The notes under the pieces were generated by a model. That model saw nothing but the letters and a program-made list of their open reading frames with translations. It was not told the DNA's origin and did no database searches. A stretch of 64,000 nucleotides of DNA from Akanthomyces muscarius (Eukaryota; Ascomycota; Sordariomycetes; Hypocreales; Cordycipitaceae). Every line of letters begins with the position of its first letter. The stretch's first letter is position 1. Of the stretch, positions 26,931 through 33,731 are shown piece after piece. The stretch spans positions 3,162,001-3,226,000 of the forward strand of contig NC_079243.1 of assembly GCF_028009165.1 (NCBI RefSeq). Reading direction: 5' to 3'. A program made the translations under genes and the position numbers.

Positions 26931-29173
26931 TTATGAATTCAAAATACCGATATAATCTGCGATTCCCAGCTCTTGATGAAAGGCTTCTGAACTGGGTTCG
27001 CGACCAAGGAATTCCGTTAAACCCTGAAGCTCATCCCGGCTACTGCCATACTCCAGAACAGATTGTCTATATTTCCTGCCTTGTCTTTCGTCCATTGGAT
27101 TCATTCTAAAAGCCGAGTAAAACATGTCCGTGGAAAAGACCTTGGAGTAGAGGTACCCATAGTAACCCGCGTCGTAGCCGCCCATGAGGTGAACGTGATT
27201 TGCGTAGCCATGGCTCCAATCTCTACCCCAAGTAATCAGCAAGCTGCCGTCAGCACATGTCATATTGACTCTTACTCATTCGTCAATTTTAAATCAGGGC
27301 CTTGAAGAAGAGTGGTTGAGGTAAGGAGCTCTTGGTACAGGGAGGTAGGACTTAGGCTCTCAAGCTGATCGTGGCTCTCGGGGTCGTGGCATTTCATGTC
27401 AAATAATGCAAGCTGAAGATCACGAAGATCAGCCAGAGCCGAATTGACGTTTTTGGTTGCCACCAGACCGTCAATTAGTGCATCGGGGAGATTTTGACCA
27501 GTGTTCCAATGCCGTGAAACTGATTTGAGAACACTTGGCGTCCAACACCAATGTTCGAGCATTTGCGACGGTGCCTCCACAAAATCGCGTGGGTTGGCTG
27601 TACCGTGCAGTTTGCAATACATTGTCTTGCTAGACAGATTATGAATCGCGTGACCAAGCTCGTGAAACAGGTTGACGACCTCGCTGTGCTTTAGCAGCGC
27701 CGGCTTATCGGCGGTGGGCAGGCTGTAGTTGCACAATAGCGCTGCTGCCGGGTAGTGCCTCGTTCCGTCTCTGAGCGTGAAGCCCGGCTGGAGATTGTAC
27801 TGAGCAAGGTGGCCATACTTTCCTTCGCGCGGATGCAAGTCCATGTACAAATAGCCCAAAAACTTTACCGTGTCATCCTGCTCGCAATCAATACCCCTTT
27901 CCCATGCGCTAAAAACCAGGTTATCTCGGTGCCATCTGACATCGTCAGCTTGCCCAGTAGGGCTCAATCTTGCCAGAGCTTGGCTTCCAAGCTTCTCAAA
28001 TGTGAGGCCCATGAGTGACTCGAAAATGTTGAGCATTGCGGAGACAGTGTTGTCAAGAGGGAAATATTCTGCGATTTGTAAGAAGTCAACGCCATGTTGT
28101 GATTCCAACATGAGTCGTTCGTAGTAGTCAAGGTCCCAAAAGTAGAAATTGCCGTCATTTTTTAGGCCTCTCGCGATGCAATCTCTCGCTTTGATGCCCC
28201 TCAAATTGCTCAACTCCTTCTCTGCCGCTAGCGTTAGTGGCGACTGAAGCTCAGTCAAGAACGCCCATACTTTCTCGGGGTTTTTGGCCATGCTGCCTCT
28301 GAGCTTCCGAGTCGCGTGGCTCTTGAAGCCCAGCATGCGAGCAGCTTCATCCCGCAAAAGAATGGTTTCGTTAAACAAAGCCGCATTTTCTGGGCACTGC
28401 ATCATGTTAAAAAACATCAGATCCGCGGTTTGAATATTACCTCGACTAACTTTGTTCTGATTGGCAAGCCAAACTCGCTGGCGAACGTCAGGATCTGTCG
28501 CATGTCCCAGCACCGGCCGCAGGTGAGGATACTTGAACGTAAGGCGCAGCTTCTGACTGTCCTCGCTATTGGCCTGTTCGAGAGTGCAGATGACATCTTC
28601 CGGAACGCCGTCAAGCTCGTGCCGTTCGAGCCAAATAAAACCCTTTTCCTCAACAAGATTCTTCTTGTATTTGGCTTGCAACGCATCTAAGCGTGCTCGT
28701 ATCTTTTTGAAATGATCACGTTTCGGGCCGGGGACTATGCCGAGGCCGTCTGAGATGCTTTGCTTATGCATCCTTTCGATTAAGCGCAGGTCTTCTGGGC
28801 AGAGTGATAATCGACCTCGCTTCGAATGAACAGCATCGATTAGCTGGAATACGTCTTCGCGCGTGGAACTGTCGATCTCGTAGTCGTCTAGTTCATCGTC
28901 AGCCTTGCGACAAGCGTCGCGCAGCTCCTCTGTCGACGCGGCCTTGGTACAAAAGTAGATCACCCGCGTATTTATGCTCGCATAGTCATAGTCACGAGCG
29001 ATAGCCTCCACCACATTTTCGAAAGTTGCTGTTTCCCGAGTAATTGTGGATGCTATTTTGTCGAGCAACTTGCGTCTTGTGTCAACGATGGAACGGGCAA
29101 GTCGATTAACAGTATCGGCAGTGTAATTGAAGAGGGGAGGAGCCTGCGGCGGCTCTTGAAAAACTGTAGACAT
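26931..29173 (-). CDS. M3 family zinc metallopeptidase (thimet-oligopeptidase type)
   Basis: Two exons, 29173-27276 and 27222-26931, 729 residues, the normal size for cytosolic M3 oligopeptidases. The zinc motif HELGH lies at 27664-27650 (residues 504-508) within VNLFHELGHAIHNL, and the downstream substrate loop reads GGYDAGYYGYLYSKVF. A 53-nt intron ending at 27223 was chosen over a 32-nt one; both keep frame, so a few residues near the join are uncertain. These enzymes cut short peptides. There is no signal peptide, so it should act in the cytosol or an organelle. It lies next to, and in the same direction as, the UstYa-type genes. Peptidases occur in fungal RiPP clusters, so a role in peptide maturation is possible but unproven. 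Confidence 0.9.
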
Positions 29174-29753
29174 GTTCGCGTCCTCGAGCAGAGCAAAAGT
29201 CGTTCAAGTTCGATCTTAGCTGGGTAACGCTTCAAAGCGACAACGATGCTAGCGGCCGCCAACTGAACCGCTTCGTGAAGGGCGCGAAATCGGGACAACA
29301 TCTGACGGCACAACAGAGAGCAGGAGCTTTCTCTGTAGAGAAATCCACAAGCCCCATTACGTTAGTTAGTTCAGGGAGCTCCTGCAGCCCATCGGAGGCT
29401 AGTTGCGTGACCCTACCACCCAAGGCTCATTAGCCTCTTGAGAGGTTGGTGGCGTACTCCAGTTCGAATCGGTCGGTCATCATGCGCACGCTAATAGATA
29501 GAGGCATAACGTAATGCCACTCACCTCATCCCTGATTAAAATCGCGGGGCTCACTCATCTACTGTTGTTCAAGCGGCCACCATACGCTAACGTCAAGCTA
29601 GTGCCCGGACTCTGGAAAGTTGGCTCGACGTCGGTTTCCATAGCCGAGCGACTTGTCAAACGCGTACACAATGCATAGCAATATGATGGTCCAAGCAATA
29701 CACAAACGCCCAAAAACGGTATATTTGATTTCTGTAGTAAGATTTCTGAAACT
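29174..29753. other. Intergenic, nothing supported
   Basis: Holds the promoter of the M3 peptidase and the 3' end of the first UstYa-type gene. A B-box-like GTTCGAATC occurs near 29460 but without a foldable tRNA cloverleaf. Confidence 0.5.
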
Positions 29754-30720
29754 TCACAGGTTGATAGTTCCCCCTTCGAATGTAAAGTCCGACTCAGTGC
29801 CGCGTCGCCACTCTATGTCTACATCTTCGACTATAGCTCGCTCACCAGCCCATTTTCTGATGGCTTCAAAATCTCGACAAGTGTGCTGAATATGCAAAGT
29901 CGCTTTGGGAAGCATTTCCGACCGATCATAGACCCATGTATGGGTAGATATATCAGAATGGCACATCACACTCATCCTGAGGCTTTCAATGCAGTGATTA
30001 AGATGATGTGCATCATGCGACGTATAATTCAACTGATGGCCTTCACCGTTCGAAGACAAAAGATCAGTGTAATAATCTGCGTAGCGAGCCGGGTAGAAGG
30101 CTTTGCGTAGGCTGTTCAAACAATGTAGCTGGTGGAAAACACCCAGCTCCACTGGGTACCGATCGGTACCATCAGGCAAAGCTGCTGTTTCGTTGACCAG
30201 TTTCGCGGCGAGAGAGGAACGAATATGAACAATCCCAACTATCTCTTGTTAGAATGGCAGAATTCGTCATCACGCGGAAGATCATTAAAACTTGCATTGA
30301 TACAGCTCATCCCACAGGCGGTCAGTCTCATCAGTCGGCAAACCACCCGCGCCGTCAGCCATATAGGGCGTCTTTGCGCTGAGACTGTCAGGCCAGAGTT
30401 CTTTTTTGTATCTAATTGCTCCTTGTGCCGGCGCTTCGAATCATCTCGTTTTAGCAGCTAAGTTGGAAAGTAGATCATGACGCCCTTTACTTACAATACA
30501 GAAGAGGGCTTAAGTTGGAGTGCATCAGTACTATGTTCCATGATAGAATGGCAATAAGGCAGTATAAAAAGCATAAATGTATGCAGTTGAAATGAATTTG
30601 TAGAACCGACCGCATACAGGACCTTGTGGTATTCGGCGGCTTGCCCCATTCCCCTTTCTCCAAGTGCTGATTCTCCAGCAGAGAGAACTGATCGGAACCT
30701 GTGGGCGTCATCCTGAACAT
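29754..30720 (-). CDS. UstYa-family (DUF3328) membrane oxidase, copy 1
   Basis: Three exons: 30720-30495, 30433-30296 and 30238-29754; 282 residues. A cytosolic N-terminus leads to one membrane helix at about residues 45-66. The luminal domain begins with YSPAQGAIRY, a family landmark, then LPTDETDRLWDELYQFGI. It carries both diagnostic H-x-x-H-C motifs, HQLHC at 157-161 and HLNHC at 200-204, the latter followed by IESLRMSVMCHSD. Intron 2 (30295-30239) starts with GCAAGT, a GC donor; only this keeps the conserved YQFG join. UstYa proteins are copper-type oxidases that cyclise or otherwise modify peptides in ustiloxin, phomopsin and cyclochlorotine pathways. All landmarks are intact. The divergent neighbour encodes a small secreted peptide, a plausible substrate. 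Confidence 0.85.
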
Positions 30721-31093
30721 TATCTGCTCGCGCACAAAATTGAATCGTAGAAAGGCGAGATTTTCAGGATTTGCAAACGTGGCGAGTAGTTGTCGGTCTC
30801 CTAGTTCCACAGGGGGAATACACCGATATTAAAATCGACAGCAACTCAGCGAATAATGACGTCAGTGCGTCTCGTTACGCAGATTCGAAGTTTTCCACAT
30901 TCTCTGGTCGAAGAAGATGTGTTGAGCTATTACGGGAGAACGGTAGATCACAACGTAAGGCATTATGGAACGCAACGTGTGGCTGCTCTAGAGCCTGTGT
31001 GGTATGAAACTATTATAAAGCGAGCCAGAGTCATAGCAGCGTCAATCCAGTTTTCGTTCTAATTCAAAAGTTTGAAGAGAATTCCTGCTTCCA
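30721..31093. promoter_or_regulatory. Bidirectional promoter region
   Basis: 373 bp between the divergent ATGs of UstYa copy 1 and the small secreted peptide gene. The arrangement predicts co-expression of enzyme and candidate substrate, possibly under the nearby bZIP-ankyrin regulator. No specific operator could be identified with confidence. Confidence 0.45.
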
Positions 31094-31323
31094 ATGAAAA
31101 CTACTGCAGTCTATCTTGCGCTCGTCACGATCGGTGCCGTCACCGCCGCTCCAGGGGGCAAGTTGCATGCATAATCTCTTTTCCACATGATAATTCTAAC
31201 CAGCACTATCTAGCTGGTGTTTTGAGCAATGTTGAGAGTCGAGCTCTCGAAGCGCGCAACATTGTCGACCGAGCCGATATGTACGACAAATGGAGCACCA
31301 CGGGTAGCGCGGACAAGAAGTAA
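31094..31323 (+). CDS. Small secreted peptide, candidate RiPP precursor
   Basis: Two exons, 31094-31157 and 31214-31323, 57 residues. Residues 1-18 are a clear signal peptide (MKTTAVYLALVTIGAVTA). The joined frame needs a GC donor (GCAAGT at 31158) and the acceptor TAG at 31213. The remainder is small and polar, contains SRALEAR, a common propeptide-like stretch, then a segment with Tyr45 and Trp48 (DMYDKW), and ends in KK. A GT donor four bases later (31162) would instead end the protein after the seven residues NWCFEQC. There are no repeats or KR sites, unlike known dikaritin precursors. Its place between two UstYa-type genes suggests a substrate role. The coding call rests on the signal peptide, splice signals and context. 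Confidence 0.55.
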
Positions 31324-31685
31324 GACACAAGACAGATGAAACGTTTGATATATACTTTAGATATGGAAAATTTGAGACTTTTTCAATGAAAATCACTATT
31401 TCATCTGGCAATGTGTCATCTTGCAGTAGTATAGTGCATATCCAGTTCTTCATCTTTAAAGGCGAAATGACATGTTTATTGACGACCAATTTCGCTTCTG
31501 CGACCCGTGAAACTACCATTGCTTTTGACTTTTATTTCTGGTCAAAACTTTAGGCGTTCTCGGCTCTTCATCATTGAAGACAAGGCAGGTATAATTCCTG
31601 TCCCTCGCGGCAAAGAGTGCAGTAAGCTGAGGTGAAGCAGAGCAAGAAATTCTTCAATTACTGTACTACTCTCGATAATTTTCTA
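31324..31685. other. Convergent intergenic gap
   Basis: Short AT-rich spacer between the peptide gene and the 3' end of UstYa copy 2. Nothing else is seen. Confidence 0.5.
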
Positions 31686-32466
31686 TCAGCAAAATGTACA
31701 GTGGTTTCGCTCTCTAAAAGAATAAATCTCTCCGATATTGCGGCATGATCTCAAGTCGTCGAACCCTGAAATGACTTTGCGGCTCGTACCATCAGGGCTA
31801 ACTCCTCGCTCAATAGTGTCATCTCCGTAGCACAAAATGGTCTAGATGTATTAAAAAAAGCCGAAAGAGTTCATGGCCTATGACGTACATTTCGTAAGTA
31901 GTCTAGACAATGTGGCCAATGGTCATCATGTTGTGAGTCGATTCCAATATCTTTGCCATCTCGAGAGTCTTGCAGAGCCTTGCGAATCGCGGTTAAGCAA
32001 TGAAGTTGATGGAACCTGCACAAATCTTCGAATGAGTTCGCGTAGAGTATGGTGTTGAGGCTCGAAAGAATTGTATGCCTTACATGCTTATTGCTCCAAT
32101 ATCTTCTTTTCCGTCAGACATTCCCCTAGAAGACAAGATGATTGAAGACGTCTCGGTCTCATTCCAGAGACCATCAAATTTATGGTCTAGAGATTGGTAG
32201 GTCGGGCTCGCTCCGTATCGACGCTCCACCATCTGAGCATAGCCTTGTCGCATATTTTTGAAGTGCGAGGAGGACTTGTGTAGATCAATAATCATGAGCA
32301 GCTCAAAAATGATTACTATTAAGGCTAGTGAACACACAGCGCCGAGGAGAAAATGTGCCTTCCGAAGGGGCCCCTGGGCCTCCTCATCAGTCGAAGACTC
32401 GGGAAAGTCAAGCTCCCGGTTCTTTAAAGGTATACGAGCATAGCCCGATTCGAGCCACCGATACAT
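31686..32466 (-). CDS. UstYa-family (DUF3328) membrane oxidase, copy 2
   Basis: Three exons: 32466-32084, 32015-31889 and 31841-31686; 221 residues with introns of 68 and 47 nt. The N-terminus (MYRWLESGYARIPL) is cytosolic, followed by a membrane helix at about residues 39-62. The luminal part shows YGASPTYQSLDHKFDGLW, then AISMFHQLHCL with H-x-x-H-C at 130-134, HWPHCLDYLR with H-x-x-H-C at 160-164, and LCYGDDTIE after the last junction, all family landmarks. The first motif is split by intron 1, inside the Met codon. The three unspliced frames hide the gene from simple ORF scanning. It is distinct from copy 1, so two different modification steps are likely if both act on one peptide. The substrate is inferred from context. 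Confidence 0.83.
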
Positions 32467-32881
32467 TGCTGTTGTCAAGATGGAATCGAATTTGAATTTT
32501 GGCAAACGCATTCGGTGGGATGGCGAGCCGAATATTCTGCCGCTACCAATGATCGTAGAACACGCGGATAAAGAAAAAGCGCAACAAAACACGGCGGGCG
32601 ATTGGAAAACGTACCAGTGAATTGTGAGAGTGCGAAAATTTGGGTTGAGTTACGAAATACTAATAATTCCACTGCTGGTTATAGAATTACCTGATCATTT
32701 TCTCGTGTCAAGACGCCGCGGCAGACCCAGTTGCCCACCACTAGTAACGTAATCAGAACTGCTACACGCGTCGGAATAACGTCAGCCGTCCGAAAGATGA
32801 GAATCTAACATAACTATATGCGCTATCAGAAGATGATTCGTATTTATCTAACGTAAACAACAAAATTCGCAGTCGCAAGTG
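32467..32881. other. Intergenic
   Basis: Between UstYa copy 2 and the 3' end of the bZIP-ankyrin gene; an in-frame non-ATG extension of UstYa copy 2 reaches into it but adds nothing family-like. Confidence 0.45.
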
Positions 32882-33731
32882 CTAGGAGCCATCGACATGA
32901 GCGCCACACTCTAGTAATAGTTCCGCCATGGACTTTGAGCCACTCTCCGCTACGTGATGAAGTGCCGTACGACCCCAAACATCCTTCAGGTTCATGTCTA
33001 TATGTGAGCTCGCGAGTAATCTGACTTTATCCTCGCTTCCCGCCTTCACCGCGTAGAACAGTGCTGTTTGGCCATTGGCGTCTTGCGTGTTCATGTCAGT
33101 GAGATTGCATATAATTAGTTGTAGCAAAGGAGCTTTGCAGCACTGCGCCGCGATGTGAAGGGCGGTTAGCCCATCATCGTCTGTCTTGGTCAGATCAGCG
33201 CCTTTCTCCATCAACAGTCTGACAATAGGCTCGTTTTGGGCTCTCAGGGCAACGTGAAGCGGCGTCTGAGTTAGGGAAGGCTGGTGTGCTGCACCTTCCA
33301 GCTCGTGCTGAATAGACGAGTCTGTGTCGTTGGTCCATGTGTAGACATCTAGCAAGCTATCGGGAGGAGCCAAGATGGGCCCGGAATCTTTCTCTTCTAT
33401 CGCAGCTGCCAGGGCGGCTAGAGGTAGTGTTGTCAATGGCAATGGGGAGCTACCAAGGCCTGCGAGCAGTGGTTGCGCTGCAGTCTCTTCTAGGTTCCAG
33501 CTCATCGTCGTTCGGCTCACGGCTGCCTCGAGTGCTCGCATTTTTTTCTTCTGGTTGATACCTACACGTTGTTAGGCCGCCTCTCAAAGTGCCAAGGGTT
33601 TTGGGTATATGGCACTACGTACGGTAATTTCTCTGCGCAATCCGGTTCTGGGTTTTTTTGCGCTCTGCTTTTCGGTCGTTATCTCGGCATGCTGTTGTGT
33701 CGCGGTTCGCAGCTGCCAGCACGCTAGTCAT
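32882..33731 (-). CDS. bZIP-basic-region plus ankyrin repeat regulator (TOXE/bANK type)
   Basis: Two exons, 33731-33623 and 33561-32882, 262 residues. Exon 1 carries a bZIP basic region, ERKKTQNRIAQRNYR, continued after the 61-nt intron by INQKKKMRALEAAV. No clear leucine zipper follows. The second half has about four ankyrin repeats, visible as QTPLHVALRAQNEPIVRLLMEKGADL, then DGLTALHIAAQ, NGQTALFYAVK and WGRTALHHVAE units. This bZIP-basic-with-ankyrin layout is that of TOXE, the HC-toxin cluster regulator, and of other pathway-specific cluster regulators. It sits directly upstream of UstYa copy 2 in the same direction, so it probably controls the adjacent genes. The first exon is too short to show as a long frame and was found by splicing. 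Confidence 0.82.

What the first reader, a model, noticed from the sequence alone, without database searches (positions are those of the whole stretch)
29754..33731. Compact candidate RiPP cluster: two UstYa-type oxidases, a secreted peptide and a bANK regulator
Four genes in 4 kb combine the parts of a fungal peptide-modification pathway. The two enzymes each carry a membrane helix and two H-x-x-H-C motifs, as UstYa/UstYb do (seen). UstYa-type enzymes modify ribosomal peptides in ustiloxin and phomopsin pathways and non-ribosomal ones in cyclochlorotine (established). The regulator has the TOXE layout. No NRPS, PKS, tyrosinase or methyltransferase is visible in the flanks, so a ribosomal substrate is the simplest reading, and the small secreted peptide between the oxidases is the only candidate (inference). 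A cluster this small with a non-repeat precursor would be a new type.
Basis: partly seen in the sequence, partly recalled or inferred. Interest (0 to 1): 0.9.

Follow-up and report, generated by a model that had tools for sequence, protein, structure and literature searches.

The report
Candidate fungal modified-peptide gene cluster
An insect-killing biocontrol fungus carries a small gene group that probably makes a chemically altered peptide from a precursor without the repeats usual in such systems; the parts are present and intact, but the peptide has not been shown to be made.

Summary
The four genes are there. Two UstYa-type oxidases, each with two HxxHC motifs, and a TOXE-type bANK regulator splice into complete proteins. 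Between the oxidases lies a 57-residue peptide gene with a signal sequence and a GC-AG intron; no homologue was found, and evidence that it is a gene is moderate. The M3, divergent oxidase/peptide and second-oxidase promoters each carry TGACGTNA, close to the published bANK "Api-box"; the regulator's promoter does not. In the same genome 8 of 19 other UstYa loci read have a repeat frame with KR sites nearby, three of them between an oxidase pair as here. Best reading: a small UstYa RiPP cluster with a single-core precursor without internal dibasic sites. Against it: no expression data, no conserved peptide, no M3 seen with the nearest UstYa relative; single-core UstY RiPPs were already suggested in print (PMC12048977). 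New variant of a known kind, unproven.

The parts
26931..29173 (-). M3 oligopeptidase, 729 aa model, exons 27276-29173 and 26931-27222, HELGH active-site motif intact, no signal peptide evident by eye; public annotation LMH87_002409 (690 aa, two further stretches spliced out)
   Evidence: Pfam PF01432 288.8 and 75.8 bits on the two exons; gene model; P0027 confirms the 53-nt intron
29588..29595 (-). TGACGTTA in the M3 promoter
29754..30720 (-). UstYa-1 oxidase, 276 aa, exons 30491-30720, 30296-30411, 29754-30238 (second intron GC-AG)
   Evidence: 50% identity over 95% to Beauveria P0001
30721..31093 (.). Divergent promoter shared by UstYa-1 and the peptide gene, with palindromic TGACGTCA at 30857-30864
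31094..31323 (+). Candidate precursor peptide, 57 aa, exons 31094-31157 and 31214-31323; signal sequence, GC-AG intron with CTAAC branch site; one Tyr (45) and one Trp (48) in the mature part (MYDKW); only dibasic site is the terminal KK
   Evidence: no homologue
31554..31635 (+). Possible third exon of the precursor (83-aa model, intron 31320-31553), which would create a KKR site
   Evidence: GTAAGA donor, weak branch site, neutral codon score
31686..32466 (-). UstYa-2 oxidase, 221 aa, exons 32084-32466, 31889-32015, 31686-31841; long branch in the tree
32777..32784 (-). TGACGTTA in the UstYa-2 promoter
32882..33731 (-). bANK (TOXE-type) regulator, 262 aa, exons 33623-33731 and 32882-33561; basic region KTQNRIAQRNYR, four ankyrin stretches, no zipper
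   Evidence: of 106 matches in the genome only its own covers the basic region (146 of 231 candidates scored)

Best explanation
A five-gene cluster for a ribosomally made, UstYa-modified peptide. The bANK protein activates the M3, UstYa-1/peptide and UstYa-2 promoters through TGACGTNA sites (inferred). The 57-residue precursor enters the ER by its signal sequence (predicted). UstYa-1 and UstYa-2, anchored in the membrane, oxidise one short core in its C-terminal half, most likely joining the only tyrosine and tryptophan of the mature part, in MYDKW (inferred from family chemistry). The core is then freed without internal dibasic (Kex2-type) sites, by single-basic or terminal KK cuts plus trimming, in which the neighbouring M3 oligopeptidase may take part (inferred; its lack of a signal sequence is a difficulty). 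Shown: gene content, intact motifs, frames, promoter sites. Not shown: expression, modification, product.
For: Both oxidases intact, with two HxxHC motifs. A spliced signal-peptide frame lies between them, expected 0.033 times in shuffled sequence, with codon use above the 95th percentile of non-coding stretches and a GC-AG intron with a CTAAC branch site. In this genome 8 of 19 other UstYa loci read have a repeat frame with KR sites nearby. In L019, L020 and L032 it lies between two UstYa genes; the plus-strand UstYa genes of L019 and L020 are the nearest paralogues of UstYa-1 (42-44%; same 19-row group at 81/85). Every other M3 match over the cut-off lies 90 kb or more from any UstYa match; chance adjacency over 23 UstYa loci, 14 M3 loci and 12,347 genes is about 5%. 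TGACGTNA (1 per 14.6 kb genome-wide) occurs in all three non-regulator promoters, product of chances 2.8e-5 before a charge for motif choice. The regulator's own promoter lacks it, as reported for APF2 (PMC4109984 passages).
Against: No transcript evidence; neither UstYa-1 nor the peptide came back as an A. muscarius protein, although that annotation used RNA-seq, including from infected insects (PMC10323777 passages). The codon score does not tell UstYa-1 and UstYa-2 from non-coding sequence, so it is weak support for the peptide. The mature peptide is not similar to any of five precursors of the genome (p 0.10, 0.77, 0.10, 0.15, 0.94). The five dikaritins known in 2022 come from Kex2-repeat precursors (PMC10512285 passages). 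TGACGTNA is not enriched in the window as a whole (8 matches, 6 expected), an unbiased k-mer test of the three promoters is not significant (14 shared 8-mers with a wildcard, 9.9 expected), and I had seen two of the sites by eye before choosing the pattern. M3 has no evident signal sequence, and no M3 of the Beauveria annotation that has the UstYa-1 relative was among the 120 rows shown. UstYa-2 sits on a very long branch.
Confidence: 0.45

Rival explanations
1. The UstYa pair and regulator are a tailoring module for a substrate made elsewhere (a non-ribosomal or other peptide), and the peptide frame is a chance reading frame or an unrelated secreted protein.
For: UstYa enzymes also act outside RiPPs: DUF3328 proteins hydroxylate and chlorinate in cyclochlorotine clusters (PMC12048977 passages). 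bANK regulators are best known from cyclic-tetrapeptide NRPS clusters (PMC4109984 passages). The peptide has no homologue, and such frames occur 6 times in 64 kb of real sequence.
Against: No NRPS or PKS domain in the 65 ORFs scanned in the window. Codon score above the 95th percentile of non-coding stretches, a good intron, and the divergent promoter shared with UstYa-1 carrying the motif.
Confidence: 0.25
2. The precursor is the three-exon, 83-residue form: the core lies after a KKR site in the third exon, so the cluster is an ordinary dikaritin with one core.
For: The stop codon of the 57-aa model sits inside a GTAAGA donor. Splicing 31320-31553 adds 26 residues, 25 of them past a KKR site, and ends before the UstYa-2 stop codon.
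Against: The intron would be 234 nt, against 47-79 nt for the other seven in the cluster, with only weak branch-site matches (two of the other seven also lack a clear one). The third exon's codon score is neutral (-0.03) and it contains no tyrosine.
Confidence: 0.12
3. The M3 peptidase is a bystander; the working unit is the four genes the first reader named. (Not exclusive of the best explanation.)
For: Expected chance adjacency about 5%. The genome has 14 M3 loci over the cut-off. M3 lacks an evident signal sequence. The best M3 relative outside the species, in Lecanicillium saksenae (76% over 79%), comes from a fungus not named among the 26 UstYa-1 relatives.
Against: Same strand, 580 bp from UstYa-1, and TGACGTTA in its promoter. 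antiSMASH's fungal RiPP rule itself looks for a peptidase beside DUF3328 (PMC12048977 passages).
Confidence: 0.4
4. The cluster is decaying and inactive, which would explain the long-branched UstYa-2 and a precursor without repeats or dibasic cut sites.
For: UstYa-2 branch length 2.49; no repeated unit in 29-35 kb beyond short two-copy matches; UstYa-1 and the peptide not found among annotated proteins.
Against: All five frames and their splice sites are intact, and the oxidase motifs and the M3 active site are kept.
Confidence: 0.15

Closest known systems
Dikaritins (ustiloxin, phomopsin, asperipin-2a, epichloecyclin, victorin)
   Same: UstYa-family oxidases beside a secreted precursor; asperipin-2a shows that four genes can suffice (PMC6514808 passages)
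   Different: No repeated cores and no internal dibasic sites; M3 rather than S41 peptidase; no tyrosinase or methyltransferase found; bANK rather than zinc-finger regulator
UstYa-pair/repeat-precursor loci L019, L020 and L032 of the same genome
   Same: Precursor frame between two UstYa genes; L019 and L020 hold the nearest paralogues of UstYa-1
   Different: Precursors carry repeats with KR sites (2, 9 and 3 units); no M3 or bANK within the 9-10 kb fetched; mature parts of L019 and L020 not alike (L032 not compared)
Lichen RiPP clans R1 and R2 (PMC12048977)
   Same: UstY genes with signal-peptide genes that lack repeats; a single core already proposed
   Different: Clan R1 has an O-methyltransferase and clan R2 a single UstY with an acetyltransferase; the words ankyrin, M3A and metallopeptidase do not occur in the main text
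APF2/TOXE bANK regulators
   Same: Basic region plus four ankyrin stretches, no zipper; TGACGT core in target promoters and absent from its own; one copy in a divergent promoter
   Different: Known ones control NRPS cyclic-tetrapeptide clusters; the site here is TGACGTYA, not TGACGTGA; binding untested

Membership tests
UstYa (PF11807 / DUF3328) | Profile match above the curated cut-off | tested here: met
   125.2 and 69.4 bits vs 25
UstYa (PF11807 / DUF3328) | Two HxxHC motifs | tested here: met
   both proteins (UstYa-1 also in the alignment)
UstYa (PF11807 / DUF3328) | Metal-dependent peptide oxidation | not testable with these tools
   no assay; a copper-dependent case is known to me only as a reference title in PMC12186524
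Dikaritin (original definition) | Precursor with signal peptide | tested here: inconclusive
   own rule-based prediction and codon score; expression unknown
Dikaritin (original definition) | Repeated cores with Kex2 sites | tested here: not met
   no repeat array in the cluster; one dibasic site, terminal KK
Dikaritin (original definition) | Tyrosinase and methyltransferase | tested here: not met
   no such domain in the 65 window ORFs of 110 aa or more; most shorter exons not scanned
Dikaritin (original definition) | Transporter or peptidase in the cluster | tested here: met
   M3 peptidase adjacent; M3, not S41
bANK transcription factor | bZIP-type basic region without zipper plus ankyrin repeats | tested here: met
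   the basic region is a sub-threshold bZIP_1 match (14.8 bits), judged also by eye
bANK transcription factor | Binds and activates cluster promoters | not testable with these tools
   motif only
Peptidase M3 (PF01432) | Profile match and HExxH | tested here: met
   (HELGH)

The most novel reading that the evidence does not exclude
A new layout of fungal UstYa RiPP cluster: a single-core precursor without internal dibasic sites lying between two UstYa oxidases that together make a Tyr-Trp (or other single) crosslink, matured with an M3 oligopeptidase and switched by a TOXE-type bANK regulator until now known from NRPS toxin clusters.
Probability: 0.3. Interest if true: 0.75.

Novelty: new variant of a known kind. 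Interest (0 to 1): 0.5.

Why it matters
Genome mining for fungal RiPPs leans on repeats and Kex2 sites. If clusters with one unrepeated core exist, some UstYa loci now without a recognised precursor may have one that is being missed, and this locus gives a small, testable case. It would also link bANK regulators, so far tied to non-ribosomal toxins, to ribosomal peptides.

Tried and rejected
Peptide against the 5.8-billion-protein set and the own genome: nothing but itself. Homology of the mature peptide to repeat precursors of the same genome: not significant for the five tested; the signal sequences resemble those of L019 (p 0.004), L020 (0.022) and L023 (0.03), as signal sequences tend to. 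Tox-box ATCTCNCGNA: not enriched (46 matches with up to one mismatch vs 54 expected). Unbiased promoter motif search: not significant. Tandem repeats in the window: only short arrays, none in the cluster; those elsewhere were not examined as precursors. Rfam (26-36 kb) and tRNA (whole window): nothing. Solved structures related to UstYa: none by sequence or fold (71 matches at E up to 10, none at or below 0.001; model of P0001, mean pLDDT 72). S41 peptidases: two places in the genome, none within 60 kb of a UstYa match. My recollection that ustiloxin and phomopsin clusters hold a protein called oligopeptidase could not be confirmed: the phomopsin, victorin and copper-DUF3328 papers are not held, so it is not used. 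I considered the GGACT gene at 35.3 kb and the RdRP and UvdE genes on the left as cluster members and rejected them as ordinary families.
Full report
What the window is. It lies on contig 3 (5,134,024 bases) of a 36.2 Mb genome in 12 contigs. The M3 gene at 26931-29173 matches Akanthomyces muscarius LMH87_002409, on a contig of exactly that length. The species is in the Cordycipitaceae and is an insect pathogen used in biocontrol (PMC10323777, start of abstract and passages).

The genes. Reading the sequence and joining exons gives complete frames for both UstYa genes, the regulator and the peptide, and for the M3 peptidase. UstYa-1 is supported by a Beauveria bassiana protein of nearly the same length, 50% identical over 95%. 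The M3 intron is confirmed by the public protein. Pfam scores are 125 and 69 bits for the two UstYa proteins, and the regulator has four ankyrin stretches after a sub-threshold bZIP basic region. Of 106 matches to the regulator in the genome only its own reaches the basic region (146 of 231 candidates were scored). UstYa-2 has both HxxHC motifs but sits on the longest branch of the tree. All 65 non-overlapping ORFs of 110 aa or more in the window were compared with Pfam: no NRPS, PKS, tyrosinase or methyltransferase.

The peptide. Between the two oxidases, on the opposite strand and divergent from UstYa-1, is a 57-residue frame: a classical signal sequence, a 56-nt GC-AG intron with a CTAAC branch site, and a mature part with one tyrosine and one tryptophan three apart. 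UstYa-1 also uses a GC-AG intron. In the 8.5 kb around the cluster a strict scan gives only this frame and one false start inside UstYa-1; shuffled sequence gives 0.033 per 966 bp, and the whole window holds six hits. Its codon score is above the 95th percentile of 330 non-coding stretches, but the two UstYa genes score like non-coding sequence, so the test is weak. No homologue was found and no paralogue. The stop codon overlaps a donor site, so a three-exon form with a KKR site cannot be excluded.

An intact M3 oligopeptidase lies 580 bp from UstYa-1 on the same strand. The genome has 14 M3 loci over the cut-off, the others 90 kb or more from any UstYa match. None of the 19 other UstYa loci read has an M3 or bANK match within the 8.5-9.9 kb fetched. 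Chance adjacency somewhere in the genome is about 5% (gene number 12,347 from PMC10323777). The peptidase has no signal sequence by eye, so a role in the cell's interior, on the peptide before export or in breakdown of the product, is as possible as leader removal.

The same genome as a control. Of 19 other UstYa loci read (3 more were not), 8 have a repeat frame with regular KR sites nearby: L019, L020, L023, L025, L029, L032, L033, L034. A signal sequence passes my rule in L019, L020, L023 and L033 and is seen by eye in L025; in L029, L032 and L034 the first exon was not resolved. L026 has three GHSWY repeats without regular dibasic sites. In L019, L020 and L032 the precursor frame lies between two divergent UstYa genes, and the plus-strand UstYa genes of L019 and L020 are the closest paralogues of UstYa-1. 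So UstYa genes in this fungus often sit with peptide precursors, which raises the prior for this one. The mature sequences are not alike for the five compared.

Regulation. In apicidin F the bANK protein APF2 is thought to work through TGACGTGA, found in all cluster promoters but its own and once in each divergent promoter (PMC4109984, passages). Here TGACGTNA occurs in the M3, divergent and UstYa-2 promoters and not in 1,529 bp before the regulator. The genome-wide density is 1 per 14.6 kb, so the product of chances is 2.8e-5, about 2e-4 to 5e-4 after charging for one-wildcard variants of the two published boxes. By the looser TGACGT core the chance is about 0.003 (product of the real-segment rates) to 0.012. 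The pattern is not enriched in the window as a whole (8 vs 6 expected), an unbiased k-mer comparison is not significant, and two of the sites had been seen by eye first. I treat this as suggestive.

Conservation. Sparse. UstYa-1: one relative at 50% over 95%, the other 25 at 45% or less over 45-79% of the length. M3: 76% (over 79%) in Lecanicillium saksenae, 54% in Pochonia, then generic enzymes at about 50% or less (120 of 753 rows seen, and only the 7,997 best candidates were scored). This is the main gap.

Literature. Umemura's survey found DUF3328 genes most often right next to Kex2-repeat genes (PMC7329392, passages). Five dikaritins were known in 2022, described as products of Kex2-repeat precursors (PMC10512285, passages). 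Lichen clusters with UstY genes and no repeats were suggested as possible single-core cases (PMC12048977, passages). Three UstYa genes of Beauveria are raised during insect infection (PMC12142624, passages). The two A. muscarius genome papers contain no RiPP, UstYa or DUF3328 wording in their main text (PMC10323777; PMC11354060; the latter's antiSMASH table was not seen). Searches for single-core UstYa RiPPs in the held library listed no title or abstract opening that reports a demonstrated case; subscription papers are mostly not held.

Verdict. A plausible, compact UstYa RiPP cluster with one more gene than reported and an unusual precursor. It would work like a dikaritin pathway but fails the original repeat criterion, so I do not file it as one. 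The confidences given for the rivals overlap, since the M3-bystander and decay readings do not exclude the main one. Expression data would settle most of it.

Noticed in passing
L034 3377-3985 (G000 C1 near 1,214,400): Repeat frame KSVEDYTIGPEKR, about seven copies, beside a UstYa gene: a YxIG core like ustiloxin's, in a biocontrol fungus.
   Followed up: partly
L020 4437-5096 and L019 4201-4485: Two related UstYa-pair loci about 93 kb apart on contig 5, with DILY...GWGKR precursors of nine and two units.
   Followed up: partly
L032 4568-4870: Frame with three KFG(D/E)I(S/D)TLIETNY units and KR sites between two divergent UstYa genes.
   Followed up: no
L033 6872-7351 and L029 6142-6531: Related DADAATAY repeat precursors on contigs 1 and 11, each by UstYa genes.
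   Followed up: no
L026 5511-5903: Secreted frame with three GHSWY repeats and no regular dibasic sites beside a UstYa gene: another candidate precursor that is not Kex2-type.
   Followed up: no
G000, 14 loci: M3 oligopeptidase family of at least 14 loci; the closest to the window gene is at C8:172339-174199 (57% over its longest piece).
   Followed up: partly
window 29754-30720 and 31094-31323: Neither UstYa-1 nor the peptide came back as an A. muscarius protein in the searches, so both are probably unannotated.
   Followed up: partly
window 30001-33000: GC content falls to about 0.45 across the cluster core, against 0.53 for the window.
   Followed up: no
L030: Three UstYa genes within about 5.5 kb with no recognised precursor.
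   Followed up: no
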